A program made the translations under genes and the position numbers. A stretch of DNA of 64,000 nt from Clostridia bacterium (GTDB lineage: Bacteria > Bacillota > Clostridia > Christensenellales > Pumilibacteraceae). Within the stretch, counting starts at the first letter, position 1. Each line of letters begins with the position of its first letter. Below the pieces are notes generated by a model. The model searched no databases. It had not been told where the DNA came from and was given only the letters and a program-made list of their open reading frames with translations. This document shows positions 40,578-48,601 of the stretch, piece after piece. The DNA lies in contig WSNJ01000001.1 in assembly GCA_013316045.1 (NCBI GenBank), positions 26,241-90,240 of the forward strand. The letters are read 5' to 3'.

Positions 40578-41183
40578 CTATCCGCCGAGCGTAATGTCTT
40601 GGCGGGAATACCATTCGATAGCGTCGTCCAAGTGGCTCTCTCTGAACTCGGGCCACAAGTCGTCGATAACGTAAAAGTCGGAATAGACCGTTTGCAGCGG
40701 CAGAAAACCCGACAGCCGCCGCATTCCGCCCCAACGGATAACCATATCTATACGCGGAATGTCGCGCGAAAGCCAACCGTTTTTAATATCCCATTCGAAA
40801 CCGTAATTAACAAGAAGATTGACCCGCATTTTATCGCTCGGCGGGTCTTTTTTTTCGGCGTAGGGCAGTAACTGCGCGGGAAAACTTTTCGATTCCGTAT
40901 TTCCGCAAACGTATACCGAAACGTTCTCTTTCTCTATAAGCTCCACGGCGTTACAGCAGGCGGCTTTGAACGCTTCGACCTGCTCCTTGGGTCGCTTGCA
41001 GTTGTCGACGGTAAAGCCGTAATACGTAAGCTCTTTTACGTTCCGTTTCTGTGCGGCGCGCAAAAGACTCAGCCCCGGCATAAGTCCGTGGTCGTAGCCG
41101 TTTTCTTTTTTCAAACCGTGCAGGGTAGCCCAACGCCTGTTCCCGTCGGGAATTATACCTATATGTTCGGGGTAGTGGTGCAT
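40578..41183 (-). CDS. Divergent undecaprenyl diphosphate synthase family protein
   Basis: A 201-aa cis-prenyltransferase homolog (ATG at 41183; a TTG start at 41210 would add nine residues). Family motifs are present but altered: HIGIIPDGNRRWA near 7-19 (usual DGNGRWA), LTYYGFTVDNCKRP for the usual FSTENWxRP, and RWGGMRRLSGFLPLQTVYSD near 160-179 where Glu of GGE is Met and the final metal-binding Glu is Asp. It is shorter than standard UppS (230-260). It may make a different prenyl chain or have lost activity. No ribosome site is obvious. A main uppS presumably lies elsewhere. Confidence 0.75.
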   Translation of the reverse strand: MHHYPEHIGIIPDGNRRWATLHGLKKENGYDHGLMPGLSLLRAAQKRNVKELTYYGFTVDNCKRPKEQVEAFKAACCNAVELIEKENVSVYVCGNTESKSFPAQLLPYAEKKDPPSDKMRVNLLVNYGFEWDIKNGWLSRDIPRIDMVIRWGGMRRLSGFLPLQTVYSDFYVIDDLWPEFRESHLDDAIEWYSRQDITLGG

Positions 41184-41304
41184 ATACCCGATTATCGGCA
41201 ATATGCGCAAAAAATATACCGCGGAAACATCCGATTATACGTTCAAGCGTATTGTCATAGCAAAAATTTCGCTTCGTGAGCGTCGGAATTAAAATAACTA
41301 TATC

Positions 41305-41589
41305 TTATTTTTCGTTTTTGATTTTATCCGACTCGCTTTCTTCGGTCAATATTTTTTCGATAACGTCTATCTTAGTGCGAATGTCGGCAATAGAACTTAT
41401 TGCCGTTTGTTTGCGCATATTTCTTACTCTTTGACGGTAATTCCACTTTTTACAATTTTCGTTTTTATCCACAATTTTGTTTTGAGTAGAGCAAAAACCT
41501 ATATCTTCTTGTTGCAGATTGCAAAACCCTTTCGTATAAAACCGCCTGAAAGCTCCGCAATTCCAACACTTTTTATTTTCTTCTTTCAT
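41305..41589 (-). CDS. Small Cys-rich protein, putative metal-binding
   Basis: A 94-aa protein. The N-terminal half has CWNCGAFRRFYTKGFC and GFCSTQNKIVDKNENCKKW, five or six Cys that could hold a zinc or iron-sulfur site. The second half is helical and charged (ISSIADIRTKIDVIEKIL). An AGGAG site 8 nt before the ATG supports it. AT-rich compared with its neighbours, it starts the second accessory patch. Similar small Cys proteins are common next to mobile or phage genes in Firmicutes. No function can be stated. Confidence 0.65.
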   Translation of the reverse strand: MKEENKKCWNCGAFRRFYTKGFCNLQQEDIGFCSTQNKIVDKNENCKKWNYRQRVRNMRKQTAISSIADIRTKIDVIEKILTEESESDKIKNEK

Positions 41590-41710
41590 AATTTAACTCC
41601 TATGACTATTAAGTTTTATAATAAAACATCTTTAATGGAATTATAAATGAAAAAAATATAAAAAACTTGACTTATACGTTTTACGTATGAAAAAAATTTT
41701 CAACAATTAT

Positions 41711-41746
41711 AAAAAGACCTTAAACAATTACGTTTCGGGTCTTTTT
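41711..41746 (-). terminator. Terminator of the membrane protein gene at 41772
   Basis: AAAAAGACC (41711-41719) and GGTCTTTTT (41738-41746) form a stem. T-runs exist on either strand, so it can act in both directions. Confidence 0.78.
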
Positions 41747-41771
41747 GCTACTTTGCTTACAGGCGCGCGCC

Positions 41772-42908
41772 TTATCTGTATTTTATATATTCGATAAGGG
41801 ACTTTACGGAGTTCGGGATAATGGAAATTCCCACGGAAACGAAGAAAAGGCACGCCAGCCCGTAAACGGTAGGGTGGCGCAAAAGAGAGCTTACGGTTAC
41901 GGGCGATTTTGTTACGCCGCTTTCTATAATGACTAAAAACAACAGCCCCATAAAAATAAGCAACGCCGCCGCGGCGAACTTAATCAGAAAAGCGTTTACG
42001 AATTCGTATCTGTGGAAAGCAATAACGCCGAACATCAAGCCCAACGCTATCGGAAAACCGCCAACCACGGCGGGCATATCGCCCATAATATGAAAGTATC
42101 CCATCAGAACAATGAAAATTCCCACAACAATACAACATATTCCTGCGACAAGCGCACCCTTTTCTATTTGTACGGCGGGGCGTTCGCGCTTAGGCGCAGG
42201 GCATTTTGCGGAATCGTTGCCCGCGTTGTCGGTATGATTGTCGGCGTTCTTCTTGTCGCCGCCTTTGCGCCGCTTGCCTTTGGGAACTTTTATTTCTTCG
42301 AGTTTATCTCCCAGATATTTTTTAATCAGATAAGCGTCGGAAACGGGCGGCATAAAGCCCATAGGAATCCGCTCTTTGTCGCTTTGAATACAAAACACGA
42401 GAAAAACGCCCGCTCTCGATTTTATCATATGACAAACGGACAGCTCTTTCCTGTCGATAACGCGCTGTTGACCGCGGTTTTTTATAACGATAAAACCGTC
42501 GTAAATCATTAAAGCGTTTTCGCGGCTCTTATTCTCGTCGGCGGTATTAAGCTCGCTTTGCAGTTCTTCTATTCTTAGGCGCGACTCTATTTCGTGCGGA
42601 CGGTAATATTTGCCGACCTTTCGCATAAATATGCCCCATAAGCCGAAAACGGTAAGCACCGTAATAAGAATTACGACGCCGAGTATTATAAACAGTATAA
42701 CGTAGCTTTTTATTACCGCGGATTTACCGTAAAGGCGCAAATCGAAAATAAAATTCACAACGCACCAAGCGGTTAACAGCAACGCGCAAATTAAAATCCA
42801 TATCGCCGTAAACGATTTGATATACCGCTTCCTTTCGCTTTTCGACATATCGAGCGGGTGCTTTGTGTCGCTGTATTCGTATAACAATTTACCGTAATTA
42901 TTATCCAT
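41772..42908 (-). CDS. Membrane protein of unknown function
   Basis: A 378-aa protein; the ATG at 42908 has GGAGAG 7 nt upstream, while a GTG at 42974 lacks a site. Two helices near 35-55 and 70-100, a cytoplasmic part of about 130 residues with a PH-like strand pattern (MIYDGFIVIKNRGQQRVIDRKEL), a Lys/Asn-rich linker (KGKRRKGGDKKNADNH) and then four or five helices to the end. No known family is recognised. It lies upstream of an AT-rich patch and is the only large neighbour of the TIR-methyltransferase gene on the same strand, 34 nt downstream of its stop region. Confidence 0.7.
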   Translation of the reverse strand: MDNNYGKLLYEYSDTKHPLDMSKSERKRYIKSFTAIWILICALLLTAWCVVNFIFDLRLYGKSAVIKSYVILFIILGVVILITVLTVFGLWGIFMRKVGKYYRPHEIESRLRIEELQSELNTADENKSRENALMIYDGFIVIKNRGQQRVIDRKELSVCHMIKSRAGVFLVFCIQSDKERIPMGFMPPVSDAYLIKKYLGDKLEEIKVPKGKRRKGGDKKNADNHTDNAGNDSAKCPAPKRERPAVQIEKGALVAGICCIVVGIFIVLMGYFHIMGDMPAVVGGFPIALGLMFGVIAFHRYEFVNAFLIKFAAAALLIFMGLLFLVIIESGVTKSPVTVSSLLRHPTVYGLACLFFVSVGISIIPNSVKSLIEYIKYR

Positions 42909-43008
42909 AAAACTACTCTCCGCAAATTTTATCGAGTTGTTTATATTGTTCTTGAAATCCGATATTCGGTTCACGTATTCAAATGCTCGCTAAAAAGATA
43001 AGACCTGT

Positions 43009-44289
43009 TCAGTTTTTAGTTGCCGAATAAAAGAATATACCCAATAATATAAAGTATTTTCCGTTCATATAATCTTCTTTCATTTCTTTGTGTTTTTGTG
43101 TTACGCCTTTCAAAAGGTCAAATGCTTCGTAATTATCGAAATACGAAGCATTATCGGTAGCCCATAGTTCGGAGTTAAAGTACAAGTCCCATAATTCTTC
43201 TCTGTATTTTCCGTCAAAATCGTTAGACGATACGGAAGAAGATAAAAGACGGATATTTTTGAAACCCGCGTTTTTCAAGCACAAAGGAATTTTTCTACCC
43301 ATTTTTCTATCACCGGATTCCTTTGAGTGCTCCCAAATATAAAAACAATCGTCGAAAAATTTAGAGTGTGGATAGACAAGATTTACGCCGTCGTCCTCGT
43401 CTTGAATGAAAACGGTACCGCCTTCGTTTAATAGGATATGTAAGTTCTTTAATAATTCGTCAATTTTGCCTAAGTGTAGCAGTACCGCCGAAATATGAAT
43501 TATATCGAAACCTATAATATTGTACCTTCGCATTTGAGTAAATACATTGCCGAGAAATTTATCCGACAGAACGTCGCATTGAATAAATGCGTGTTTGTCG
43601 TCGCCGTAAAGCGTATTTGCTTCTTGCACCGCTTCCGCATTGCAGTCCACTCCCAAAATAAAACCGTATTGCCTATCGGCGGTGCGCATAATTATATTGT
43701 CGCCGTTGTTGCAACCTATATCAAGAATCATAGGATTGTCGTATTTTGCGAATATCTCCGACAGATATGTTTCGCAGCACGCATTAAAATATCTGTTCTG
43801 GGCTTGAAGTCTAATCTTTTCAACTTCTTTTTCGGTCGAATAACTGCTTTGACTCGACTCGTCATTTTCCGGGGTTATATTTGCTTGTTCGAAAATCGCA
43901 AGTACAAGGCTCTCAAAATCTACGAATTTATCCGCATATAGCCAATTTAGACTGCCTAAAAACAACTCGATAATTTCCTGATTTTCATCGCTCAAATCAT
44001 CTAATACTACCGGAATAATAGAATAATTGCTTATCTTCTTTTGTTTTGAAATCGCTCGTGCAATTTCATTTCGTACCATTAACGACGAACAACTCGAATT
44101 AGACAAAAATACAACAAAGTTTTTAGAATTGTTTATGCCTTTGTTTATTTCTTCAATAAAATGTTGTTTACTGTCCCTAAGTTGAAACCAACACGAAGCT
44201 CCGAAAAATTTTATAACGGAAACTATTTCTTCCACCTTATCTTTATCTGCATTTGAAAATGAAACAAAAATATCATTAGTGTCGCTCAT
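43009..44289 (-). CDS. TIR domain fused to a SAM-dependent methyltransferase
   Basis: A 426-aa fusion. Residues 1-135 form a TIR domain: DIFVSFSNADKDK at strand A, ASCWFQLRDS at 31-40, and SNSSCSSLMVRNEIARAI with the putative NADase Glu at 75. Residues 155-426 are a class I methyltransferase with MILDIGCNNGDN (motif I, 187-198), GVDCNAEA (213-220) and a GFDIIHISAVLLHLG segment. No signal peptide. TIR domains in bacteria cleave NAD or make NAD-derived signals in antiviral defence. The methyltransferase could modify a nucleotide or small molecule. GAGAGG precedes the ATG. Base composition is AT-rich, pointing to transfer. Confidence 0.82.
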   Translation of the reverse strand: MSDTNDIFVSFSNADKDKVEEIVSVIKFFGASCWFQLRDSKQHFIEEINKGINNSKNFVVFLSNSSCSSLMVRNEIARAISKQKKISNYSIIPVVLDDLSDENQEIIELFLGSLNWLYADKFVDFESLVLAIFEQANITPENDESSQSSYSTEKEVEKIRLQAQNRYFNACCETYLSEIFAKYDNPMILDIGCNNGDNIIMRTADRQYGFILGVDCNAEAVQEANTLYGDDKHAFIQCDVLSDKFLGNVFTQMRRYNIIGFDIIHISAVLLHLGKIDELLKNLHILLNEGGTVFIQDEDDGVNLVYPHSKFFDDCFYIWEHSKESGDRKMGRKIPLCLKNAGFKNIRLLSSSVSSNDFDGKYREELWDLYFNSELWATDNASYFDNYEAFDLLKGVTQKHKEMKEDYMNGKYFILLGIFFYSATKN

Positions 44290-44344
44290 TAGTAAACCTC
44301 TCTAAATAAAATACATTGCATTAACTATTATAATAATACTTATA

Positions 44345-44400
44345 AAAAACCCAATCAAACGGTAAAGGTTCGACCGGGCGGGTCTTGGTGGGGCAGTAGT
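44345..44400 (-). terminator. Degenerate terminator block related to the one at 16028-16059
   Basis: On the minus strand TGCCCCACCAAG is followed by an ACCC...GGGT imperfect hairpin and six T, just after the PPOX remnant. The 16-kb locus has TGCCCCGCCAAG, a better hairpin and seven T. In the matching frame both encode CPxKxxPxE. Confidence 0.5.
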
Positions 44401-44415
44401 AACCTAAAAAGAATT

Positions 44416-44584
44416 TTATATTTCAAAAGTTTCAAACTCGCCGTCAATGTAAATTGTTGTTTCATTTGCAACAAAATGAATAATGCAATATTCGGGGATA
44501 GCCTTTTTCCGATACCGACGCAACCGTACAAACTTGACATTTAGACAAGAGATTTTTGGCTTTTTTTACAAGATTGTTATTCAT
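44416..44584 (-). pseudogene. Decayed pyridoxamine-5'-phosphate-oxidase-like (general stress) protein
   Basis: The minus-strand ATG at 44584 opens MNNNLVKKAKNLLSK and CQVCTVASVSEKGYPRI, close to the start of the Firmicutes PPOX/general-stress flavin-binding family. The frame then stops after about 40 codons. A second frame ends with TTIYIDGEFETFEI and TAA (44416-44418), like the end of the same family. A normal gene has 130-150 codons, so the middle was deleted and the remainder frameshifted. Confidence 0.6.
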
Positions 44585-44774
44585 TACAAACTTCGTTTTT
44601 TATTTTCATTATACTATTTTTACACTGAAAAGGCAAACAAAAACGCAACATAAAAGACTGTGATACTACCGCAAATGTGCCGCCTACGGCTATTAGGTTT
44701 TCGCGTAACAAGTACGAAACGGCTATGCACAAAAGTGGCGTTCGCTGCGCTCGGCTGAGAAAGGTAAAACGCGC

Positions 44775-44805
44775 AACCCGACAGATTTATTTAATCGGTC
44801 GGGTT
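44775..44805 (+). terminator. Isolated terminator-like hairpin
   Basis: AACCCGAC (44775-44782) pairs perfectly with GTCGGGTT (44798-44805), followed by TTTT-type sequence. No intact gene is seen immediately upstream; 44590-45137 otherwise holds nothing I can support as a gene. Confidence 0.6.
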
Positions 44806-45137
44806 TTGGCTTGCCTTTGGCGCGATAGCCCAACAACCGAAAGGCATTACGGCGGCAATACGGCGGCTTTACACGGCACTATACGAAATGAAAAACCGCA
44901 AAAGAAAAAACCTAGCCAAATTACTGTTTATCGTACAATTATTATAGCAAAAACAAAATATTTAAACAAGCAAACAGTAAGGCGCTTTAAGATGTTTTGC
45001 GAAGTGCCTTTTGTTTTATTTGGTAAAATTACCTTGTTCATCACGTTTTTAAGTTTGCCACGCCGTAGGAATTGGCGGTTTAGATAATATGTCTTTAATC
45101 GGCAAACACACTCCAAAACTTTCATACAAAAGAAAAA

Positions 45138-45167
45138 GTACGAACTCACTTTGGCGTGTGTTCGTAC
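45138..45167 (-). terminator. Terminator of tRNA-Ser(UGA)
   Basis: GTACGAAC (45138-45145) and GTTCGTAC (45160-45167) form a perfect stem, followed on the minus strand by TTTTT. Confidence 0.85.
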
Positions 45168-45177
45168 AATTCGCTTT

Positions 45178-45266
45178 TGGCGGAAGCGGAGGGATTCGAA
45201 CCCCCGTGGGCTTGCACCCAAACGGTTTTCAAGACCGCCTCGTTATGACCGCTTCGATACGCTTCC
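45178..45266 (-). tRNA. tRNA-Ser (anticodon UGA)
   Basis: The minus strand folds as an 89-nt class II tRNA: acceptor GGAAGCG/CGCTTCC, anticodon loop CTTGAAA, long variable arm TGGGTGCAAGCCCA, T arm GGGGGTTCGAATCCCTC and an encoded CCA. It has its own promoter and terminator. Confidence 0.96.
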
Positions 45267-45343
45267 GTACAGGTTATTATTATAATCGTTTTAACGGTTT
45301 TTCGCAAATGTTTCGGGCGTAAAACAACGTAAACGACCGTATA

Positions 45344-45372
45344 ATTATATAATATGCTTAAATCATTGTCAA
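45344..45372 (-). promoter_or_regulatory. Promoter of tRNA-Ser(UGA)
   Basis: Minus-strand TTGACA (45367-45372), a 17-bp spacer and TATAAT (45344-45349). Confidence 0.88.
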
Positions 45373-45399
45373 GTAAAGCAAAATTACTTTTCAAAACGC

Positions 45400-45428
45400 T
45401 TGCCAAAACCGTTAAAAAATGATAAAAT
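45400..45428 (+). promoter_or_regulatory. Promoter of tRNA-Ser(CGA)
   Basis: TTGCCA (45400-45405), a 17-bp spacer and TAAAAT (45423-45428), 10 nt before the tRNA 5' end. Confidence 0.82.
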
Positions 45429-45438
45429 AGCAAGGCTT

Positions 45439-45527
45439 GGAGAGGTATCGAAGTGGTCATAACGGGGCTGACTCGAAATCAGTTTGTCTTAACGGACACG
45501 GGGGTTCGAATCCCTTCCTCTCCGCCA
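45439..45527 (+). tRNA. tRNA-Ser (anticodon CGA)
   Basis: An 89-nt class II tRNA: acceptor GGAGAGG/CCTCTCC, anticodon loop CTCGAAA, long variable arm, T arm GGGGGTTCGAATCCCTT and an encoded CCA. It is divergent from tRNA-Ser(UGA), with the two promoters back to back. Confidence 0.96.
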
Positions 45528-46724: not shown

Positions 46725-46793
46725 GAGAAATTTACTATAAAATTGTCTTATTATGTGGTTTACTATTATTGTAATAAACTAAAAACGGATTTT

Positions 46794-48601
46794 ATGGCGG
46801 AGAAAATGGCTAAGGCTTATTCGATTTACGATTCGGGCAATATCAAGCGAATGACGGATTTTATAATTTCCGAGCAACTTACCGACGAAGAATTGTGGGA
46901 GTTGTTTGCAAATCAGTTCTCGGAACATACCGACGTTGCGGATCTCGGTTGGCGCGGCGAATATTGGGGAAAGACGATGCGCGGAGCTTGTTTGATATAT
47001 AAAGCGACGAGAGACGCGAAGTTATACGGCGTTTTGGAAAAAAGCGTCGAACGGTTGTTGTGTGCACAAGACGCCGACGGCAGAATTTCGACATACGATA
47101 AGAAAAACGAGTTTAAGGGTTGGGACGTCTGGTGCCGCAAGTACGTTGCGATAGGGCTCGAATATTTTTTCGACATTTGCAAAGACGAAGCGTTAAAAAA
47201 ACTTATAATAAACGCGTTGAAAAAACATTGCGATTATATGATCGAGCATATCGGCGCGGACGGCGAGAATAAAATTTCGATAACCGAAACGAGCGAAATA
47301 TGGGGCGGAATGAATTCGAGTTCGTTGCTTAAACCGTACGTCGTTTTGTTTGGTATAACGAAAGACGAGAAGTATTTGGATTTCGCGCGGTACATATTGG
47401 AAGAAGGCGGCTCGAAAGGGTTCGACATATTCGAGGCGGCATATAATCGCGAACTTATGCCGTACGAATATCCGTATAAAAAGGCTTACGAAATGATCGC
47501 GTGTTTCGACGGGGCGTTGGAATATTATAAGGCGACGGGCGAAAAAAATATCTTACGTCGTGCGAACGTTTTGCCGAAGCCGTTTTCGCTACCGATTTTA
47601 CCGCGGTAGGGGGACTGAGTTGTTATCACGAGGTATTCAATCACGCAACGCAAATGCAGACCGTGCCCATAAATATGATTATGCAGGAAACTTGCATTAC
47701 GGTGGCGATGATGCTTTATTCCGCAAAGTTGTTTTGTATAACGAAAAACTCTCTTTTGCCGGATCGCATCGAAACTATGTTTTACAATTTGTACGGCGGC
47801 ACGCTGAATTTCGATATGACTCGCGAAAACGGAAAGTTGCCGTTCGACAGTTATTCGCCGATCGCGGGCGGAAGCCGCGGACGCGCCGTCGGCGGAAAAA
47901 AGAACATCAGCGAAACGCGCTTTTACGGCTGTTGCGCTTCTATGGGCGCGGCGGGACTAGGCGTGTTTTTGGATAACGCCGTTTCTTGCGACGGCGGACT
48001 GTTTATAAATCACTATCTGTCGTCGGAGATACGATATACAACGGACTTACAGAAAATATCGATCGAACAGCGCACGAATTATCCCGAATCGGGTTTGGTA
48101 GAACTTTGTTTGCATATGGAAAAAAGCGAGAAATTCGCGCTTTGGCTCAGAATACCGAATTGGTGCGAGAAAGTTTCGGTTTCGTCGAACGCTTTTATAG
48201 AGTCGTACGAACGGCGAGAAGGATATATCGTGATAGATACGGTATGGAAAGACGGCGACGAGGTGCGGCTCGAACTCGATATGCCTTTCGAAATATCGAC
48301 GGCTAAATCCCCGTCGTCGCAAAATATTTGTTTTTGCGTAAAAAAAGGACCCGTCGTATTCACGGCGGATAAAAGATATTGCGATTTATACGAGATTTAC
48401 GACGGAGACCCGAAAACATACGTTTTTCGCGAAGCGGGTGCGAACGCCGACGGGGTGCGAACGGTCGAAATGTACGATTCAAGTAAGAAAAAAGCCGTGC
48501 TCATACCGTATGCGGACGCGGGAAAAACTTACGACGAAAGGTCCGCAGTCAACTGTTGGCTCGGAAGTAATATTAAACGGGAGGAAACGAGTTTCAGATG
48601 A
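46794..48601 (+). pseudogene. GH127-like (beta-L-arabinofuranosidase family) gene with a frameshift
   Basis: The first frame ends early at 47609 and the second frame carries the rest to 48601. A7 at 47542-47548 sits at the crossing point; one more A would give GEKKYLTSCERFAEAVF followed by TDFTAVGGLSCYHEVFNHATQ, continuous family sequence. Repaired length is about 602 aa, near the 600-650 of the family. Landmarks: GWRGEYWGKTMRG near 45, TSEIWGGMNSSSLL near 165, the Cys pair ETRFYGCCASMGAAGLG in the second part, and WLRIPNWCEKV. No signal peptide, so cytoplasmic. The last 4 bases overlap the next permease. The slip may be real, phase-variable or a sequencing error. Confidence 0.8.

What the first reader, a model, noticed from the sequence alone, without database searches (positions are those of the whole stretch)
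43009..44289. TIR-methyltransferase fusion in an AT-rich patch
A TIR domain with the candidate NAD-cleaving Glu75 is fused to a class I methyltransferase with an intact SAM motif. Known bacterial TIR defences pair TIR with SLOG, SIR2-like, protease or channel effectors; a methyltransferase partner could modify the NAD-derived signal or a nucleic acid. A decayed gene, tRNA-Ser genes and different base composition nearby mark this as an accessory site.
Basis: partly seen in the sequence, partly recalled or inferred. Interest (0 to 1): 0.72.

Follow-up and report, generated by a model that had tools for sequence, protein, structure and literature searches.

The report
Order-specific TIR–methyltransferase fusion protein family
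A gut Clostridia bacterium carries a protein that joins a predicted NAD-destroying immune-type (TIR) domain to a methyltransferase-fold domain; the same fusion is scattered through its whole order, and some members have lost the methyl-donor site but never the predicted NAD-cutting residue, which suggests the methyltransferase half acts mainly as a sensor.

Summary
Window 43009-44289 (minus strand) encodes 426 aa: TIR_2 (Pfam 2.4e-18) plus a class I methyltransferase (MTase) with an intact SAM motif. Glu75 aligns with the glutamate of NADase TIRs (SARM1/TIR-1, Cat1).

The fusion is not a one-off. I recovered 60 non-redundant full-length relatives from one order and found none in 391 same-class or 299 same-phylum genomes. 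One MTase lineage carries at least five TIR types. The TIR glutamate is present in 60/60. Seven of the 60 (at least two losses) lack the SAM motif and His272, yet keep Asp299, and all but one keep Asp300 and Arg328. Both domains are under purifying selection.

Best reading: TIR is the NAD-consuming effector, and the MTase fold is a ligand-sensing or regulatory domain in a patchy, laterally moving accessory gene. Modification of the NAD product or of nucleic acid has no support. Defence context is weak. The strongest linkage, new here, is to co-directional GNAT acetyltransferase genes (17/115 neighbours versus at most 1/93 controls), although the window's own locus has none. No activity was tested, and structure prediction of the TIR was inconclusive. 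New variant of a known kind.

The parts
43009..44289 (-). TIR-methyltransferase fusion gene, 426 aa
   Evidence: ORF and translation; Pfam TIR_2 2.4e-18 and Methyltransf_12/23/31; 60 full-length relatives
43936..44271 (-). TIR domain, residues 7-118
   Evidence: Pfam TIR_2; profile hits to Cat1 7.8e-12, TIR-1 1.3e-11, AbTIR 3.5e-10, SARM1 about 1e-9
44065..44067 (-). codon of Glu75, predicted catalytic glutamate
   Evidence: aligned with DWVHKE of SARM1/TIR-1; Glu in 60/60 relatives
43009..43821 (-). methyltransferase-fold domain, residues 157-426
   Evidence: Pfam; PDB profile hit 3MGG 7.7e-23; Foldseek hits to small-molecule MTases
43699..43728 (-). SAM-binding motif I ILDIGCNNGD (residues 188-197)
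   Evidence: sequence; Gly192/Gly196 lost in 7 of 60 relatives
43474..43476 (-). codon of His272, lost exactly where motif I is lost
   Evidence: 7/7 versus 0/53
43387..43401 (-). DEDDG motif (residues 297-301), kept even in SAM-site-less relatives
   Evidence: Asp299 60/60, Asp300 57/60
44330..44358 (-). candidate promoter TTGATT-N17-TATTAT, about 40 bp upstream of the ATG (inferred)
   Evidence: consensus scan only
44349..44379 (-). candidate intrinsic terminator upstream, suggesting a separate transcription unit (inferred)
   Evidence: consensus scan only
41772..42974 (-). unnamed membrane protein 34 bp downstream, possibly co-transcribed; no homologue seen next to the relatives examined
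45178..45527 (.). divergent tRNA-Ser pair flanking the site (45178-45266 -, 45439-45527 +), conserved in the same-genus genome G056 without the fusion

Best explanation
A single-gene accessory immune-type or stress-response protein. The N-terminal TIR is the output and most likely cleaves NAD+ through Glu75 when the protein oligomerises. The C-terminal MTase fold is the input: a ligand pocket that binds SAM/SAH and/or a small methyl-acceptor and holds or releases TIR activity. In most members the pocket still looks able to bind SAM and possibly to methylate. In at least two lineages SAM binding appears lost while a second set of pocket residues (Glu157, Arg160, Asp299, Asp300, Arg328, Arg332) is kept, so methyl transfer cannot be required for the shared function. 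Shown by sequence: domain identity, conserved residues, the pattern of losses, selection, patchy and laterally moving distribution. Inferred: NAD cleavage, oligomerisation, ligand gating, and defence against phage as the biological purpose.
For: TIR assignment and Glu alignment. Glu in 60/60 relatives across at least five TIR types. SAM residues Gly192, Gly196 and His272 jointly lost in 7/60 while Asp299 is kept in 7/7, Asp300 and Arg328 in 6/7 and Glu157 and Arg332 in 7/7; two further cases show the same pattern. The SAM-less members group as one clade of six plus L078, fewest changes 2. dN/dS is 0.03-0.17 in both domains, including the SAM-less pair L168/L169 (0.067 TIR, 0.025 MTase). The fusion is patchy: present in a minority of genomes in every family surveyed. 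A family-f1 copy (L084) nests among f15 copies at 85% identity while f1 copies G000/G011 are 62-65% from it. The order N-terminal TIR then C-terminal partner is the usual effector-sensor layout of bacterial TIR immune proteins (established knowledge: TIR-STING, TIR-SAVED).
Against: No biochemical or phage data. Most members (53/60) keep the SAM site, so methylation may matter in the majority, including this one. Defence neighbours are few, and none sits beside the window's gene. The TIR model was low confidence (mean pLDDT 58) and found no TIR among confident fold matches, though with only seven close sequences in the alignment.
Confidence: 0.45

Rival explanations
1. A true bifunctional enzyme: the MTase methylates a specific small molecule (a NAD-derived product, nicotinamide, or an unrelated metabolite) and the TIR supplies or responds to it, so both activities are needed.
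For: SAM motif intact in 53/60. Foldseek and PDB hits are to small-molecule MTases. Free-standing relatives of the MTase sit beside a RimK-like ATP-grasp ligase, and one TIR-fused member (L148) has the same neighbour, which suggests a metabolic origin. GNAT genes, another group-transfer family, recur next door.
Against: At least two lineages lost the SAM site but kept the TIR Glu and remain under selection. No substrate can be named from the sequence.
Confidence: 0.25
2. Not phage defence: a housekeeping or developmental signalling protein, or a NAD-metabolism regulator, peculiar to these gut Clostridia.
For: No fixed defence neighbours; many loci lie between ordinary metabolic genes. No phage, plasmid or viral-contig copy. 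PADLOC hits near the loci are few (against control).
Against: Patchy presence within genera, several paralogues per genome, lateral transfer and TIR swapping are unlike housekeeping genes.
Confidence: 0.17
3. The TIR is a non-enzymatic scaffold or oligomerisation domain, and the MTase half does the work.
For: Some TIRs act as scaffolds (established knowledge). TIR types were exchanged on one MTase lineage, so the MTase is the constant part.
Against: The catalytic-type Glu is invariant in 60/60 across all TIR types, and it is the MTase site, not the TIR site, that degenerates.
Confidence: 0.1

Closest known systems
Single-chain bacterial TIR immune NADases with a C-terminal sensor (TIR-STING, TIR-SAVED, Cat1)
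   Same: N-terminal TIR with the conserved catalytic-type Glu followed by a C-terminal ligand-binding or oligomerising domain; profile matches to Cat1 (7.8e-12) and the metazoan TIR-STING (4.8e-11)
   Different: C-terminal domain is a class I MTase fold, not STING, SAVED or CARF; no cyclic-nucleotide synthase or CRISPR genes seen beside it
Thoeris (ThsB TIR plus ThsA)
   Same: weak TIR similarity to ThsB profiles (Pfam 1.3e-6, PADLOC 7.2e-6)
   Different: no ThsA-like SLOG/SIR2 partner gene found among the window neighbours; TIR fused to an MTase
3MGG-type class I SAM methyltransferases (uncharacterised Methanosarcina enzyme)
   Same: best solved relative of the C-terminal half, matching along profile positions 152-354 (7.7e-23)
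   Different: the archaeal protein has no TIR domain; DxDDG and Arg328 are hallmarks of this family

Membership tests
TIR NADase domain family | significant match to a TIR profile | tested here: met
   PF13676 2.4e-18, 67.2 bits against a cut-off of 28 bits
TIR NADase domain family | catalytic-type Glu at the conserved position | tested here: met
   Glu75 aligned with SARM1/TIR-1; 60/60 relatives
TIR NADase domain family | TIR fold in a confident structure model | tested here: inconclusive
   model mean pLDDT 58, alternating strand-helix order consistent, no confident match
TIR NADase domain family | NAD+ cleavage | not testable with these tools
   needs enzymology
class I SAM-dependent methyltransferase | motif I and motif II acidic residue | tested here: met
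   LDIGCNNGD and Asp215 present in the window protein
class I SAM-dependent methyltransferase | methyl transfer to a defined substrate | not testable with these tools
   no substrate inferred; some relatives lack the SAM site
Thoeris | ThsA (SLOG plus NADase or membrane effector) in the same operon | tested here: not met
   the same-strand neighbours 41772-42974, 41305-41589 and 40578-41210 match no SLOG or SIR2 family in Pfam; the first two match nothing in PADLOC
anti-phage defence system | enrichment beside other defence genes | tested here: inconclusive
   restriction-modification genes near 2 and extra TIR genes near 3 of about 24 loci; PADLOC comparison with control regions not decisive
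anti-phage defence system | protection from phage | not testable with these tools
   no experiment possible

The most novel reading that the evidence does not exclude
The MTase fold is an immune sensor that gates TIR NAD cleavage by the SAM/SAH state or by a methyl-acceptor metabolite, so that interference with SAM (as by phage SAM-degrading enzymes) triggers NAD loss. In some lineages the SAM site was dropped and a co-transcribed GNAT acetyltransferase took over the input: a TIR-plus-group-transfer-enzyme class of conflict systems not described before.
Probability: 0.15. Interest if true: 0.82.

Novelty: new variant of a known kind. Interest (0 to 1): 0.6.

Why it matters
Bacterial TIR proteins are a rich source of immune mechanisms, and what each one senses is usually unknown. 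This family offers natural SAM-site-less variants and TIR swaps on one partner lineage, so the question whether an enzyme fold has become an immune sensor can be tested directly with few mutants. The repeated link to GNAT genes points to a possible two-component version. No paper describing a TIR-methyltransferase family was found in the open-access library searched.

Tried and rejected
AlphaFold2 on the whole protein (mean pLDDT 52; MTase core 75-89) and on the TIR alone (58): too shallow an alignment; Foldseek and VIA-align on the TIR gave no confident match, so the TIR call rests on sequence profiles. Viral-contig, phage and plasmid searches found nothing. No tRNA-derived attachment-site repeat was found, so integration into tRNA-Ser is not shown. 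PADLOC of neighbours against controls: mostly generic families, not decisive. Suspected TIR-GNAT fusions L007/L008: Pfam sees no GNAT domain in them, so dropped. Nicotinamide N-methyltransferase as the MTase identity: no NNMT-family hit in Pfam. Literature searches for TIR with methyltransferase gave no relevant family.

Full report
What is there. The ORF at window 43009-44289 lies on the minus strand and encodes 426 aa without interruption. Pfam finds TIR_2 at residues 7-118 (2.4e-18, well over the curated cut-off) and several class I MTase families between residues 175 and 303 (best 4.4e-10). A profile of 27 relatives finds solved TIR structures: Cat1 7.8e-12, C. elegans TIR-1 1.3e-11, AbTIR 3.5e-10, SARM1 about 1e-9. 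The best MTase hit is 3MGG at 7.7e-23. In the printed alignments the family's invariant Glu (Glu75 here) falls on the Glu of 'DWVHKE' in SARM1/TIR-1 and the equivalent Glu of Cat1; that this Glu is catalytic in SARM1 is established knowledge. SAM motif I is intact (ILDIGCNNGD).

Structure prediction. Only seven close sequences could be used. The full model has mean pLDDT 52, with the MTase core at 75-89, and Foldseek matches small-molecule MTases. The TIR alone gave pLDDT 58 and no confident match. Its predicted strand-helix order fits a TIR but proves nothing, so the TIR assignment rests on sequence.

Distribution. Full-length relatives at 63-72% identity exist in several Clostridia genomes. 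In the order, 33 of 396 sampled genomes matched the narrow profile A2, including frames matched only in the MTase half, most of which turned out to carry other TIR types when read, while a few are free-standing MTases. None of 391 sampled genomes of the class other than the window's own matched, and no full-length match came from 299 genomes drawn across the phylum with the broader profile, again apart from the window's own. Within families of the order, matches occurred in 12/46, 28/201, 7/43, 5/40 and 7/41 genomes (some of the first three counts are TIR-only), and genomes with and without the gene share genera. I found no copy in phage, plasmid or viral-contig collections.

One MTase lineage, several TIR types. 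Sixty non-redundant full-length fusions were aligned. Their TIR halves fall into five similarity groups. On the MTase tree these groups need at least seven changes against a minimum of four, and holding one group (type 3) together is rejected (p-AU 1e-81; quick tree, long branches present). TIR domains have therefore been exchanged on a persistent MTase partner. A family-f1 copy (L084) nests among f15 copies at 85% identity, whereas f1 copies G000/G011 are only 62-65% identical to it, which indicates lateral transfer.

What is conserved and what is lost. Glu75, Glu157, Asp190 and Asp299 are present in 60/60. Seven sequences lack Gly192 and Gly196 of motif I, and the same seven, and only those, lack His272; six of the seven also lack Gln164. 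They keep Glu157, Arg160, Asp190 and Arg332 (7/7) and Asp300 and Arg328 (6/7). The tree gives a minimum of two independent losses (one clade of six, plus L078). Two further sequences found later show the same pattern. These are not plainly decaying genes: the SAM-less pair L168/L169 has dN/dS 0.067 (TIR) and 0.025 (MTase), like the intact pairs (0.03-0.17; many other pairs are saturated at synonymous sites). The inference is that the TIR glutamate is essential, methyl transfer is dispensable in some lineages, and a second pocket is retained. This favours an input or sensor role for the MTase fold, but the window protein itself keeps the SAM site, so a catalytic role there is not excluded.

Neighbourhood. 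The window gene has a candidate promoter and an upstream terminator of its own (consensus scans), a membrane-protein gene 34 bp downstream with no counterpart at the other loci compared, and a tRNA-Ser pair upstream. The same-genus genome G056 has the same tRNA-Ser pair but addB/addA-like genes on that side (gene identity from reading the sequence) and no fusion match, so the site is variable. No attachment-site repeat was seen. Among relatives there is no universal partner. Defence links are sparse: a HaeIII-type restriction-modification pair and another TIR gene near L020, an Eco57I-type gene near L072, TIR genes near L069 and L073, and exonuclease / uracil-glycosylase-like / DUF2779-Cas4-like genes beside L021. 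The PADLOC comparison with control regions was not decisive.

An unexpected linkage. GNAT acetyltransferases match 17 of 115 immediate-neighbour ORFs. No GNAT family appears among those with two or more members in 93 control ORFs of the same genomes, so at most one per family; Fisher p is 3e-4 with one and 4e-5 with none. They are all co-directional with the fusion, mostly overlapping or within 30 bp, directly downstream in 8/8 of one TIR-type-2 clade and directly upstream in 5/5 of the main SAM-less clade. In G1219 an intact fusion, two GNATs and a SAM-less fusion lie in one run (L172 9189-12937). The neighbour set contains related loci, so the independent number is smaller than 17. The neighbour set for this test was also limited to ORFs of up to about 450 aa, while the control set was not, so the comparison is approximate. 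The window's own locus has no GNAT.

Mechanism and rank. Most likely (0.45): TIR NADase output with a MTase-fold sensor, in an accessory immune-type gene. Rivals: a bifunctional enzyme (0.25), a non-defence signalling role (0.17), a scaffold TIR (0.10). NAD cleavage, ligand binding and phage protection are all untested. It works like single-chain TIR immune proteins; it is a TIR family member by sequence, is not Thoeris (no ThsA), and is not shown to be a defence system. Novelty: new variant of a known kind. The literature search covers open-access papers only.

Noticed in passing
L172 9189-12937 (G1219:C9); also L173, L176, L177, L004, L079, L080, L115, L116, L118, L137, L140, L179: GNAT acetyltransferase genes sit in the same direction directly beside TIR-MTase genes far more often than beside control genes; G1219 has intact fusion, GNAT, GNAT, SAM-less fusion in a row.
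   Followed up: partly
L017 1489-3258 (G020:C5): A 590-aa protein joins TIR, Tubulin/FtsZ GTPase, FtsZ_C and an FtsK alpha domain (Pfam 2e-22, 2.7e-26, 5.5e-16, 7e-15): a TIR-FtsZ fusion.
   Followed up: partly
L081 7363-8715 (G396:C5): GNAT domain fused to a class I tRNA-synthetase (W/Y type) core, 17 bp upstream of a TIR-MTase.
   Followed up: partly
L042, L006, L148: Free-standing relatives of the MTase sit beside a RimK-like ATP-grasp gene; the TIR-fused member L148 has the same neighbour, pointing to a metabolic origin of the MTase.
   Followed up: partly
L073 10769-17431 and L076 11490-16844: Shared gene block beside TIR-MTases: AAA_31 (KGGSGR) ATPase and two large proteins without Pfam match; a further TIR gene heads it in L073.
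   Followed up: partly
L021 2515-8555: Exonuclease, uracil-glycosylase-like and DUF2779/Cas4-like genes flank a TIR-MTase, with a second TIR-MTase of another TIR type convergent to it.
   Followed up: partly
window 46743-48601: GH127 beta-L-arabinofuranosidase gene split within the catalytic domain by a frame change at about 47.6 kb; decay or assembly error.
   Followed up: partly
G000:C25 2653-3993 and G000:C10 29259-29636: The window's genome has three more TIR genes: two close together on contig 25 and one in a 1775-aa frame on contig 10.
   Followed up: no
L069 14838-15653: A 272-aa protein with two TIR-like stretches (ThsB-like 4-84, SAVED-TIR-like 122-208) about 4 kb from a TIR-MTase.
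   Followed up: no
window about 41000-45500: GC skew changes from mixed or negative to steadily positive at about 45 kb, close to the tRNA-Ser pair.
   Followed up: no
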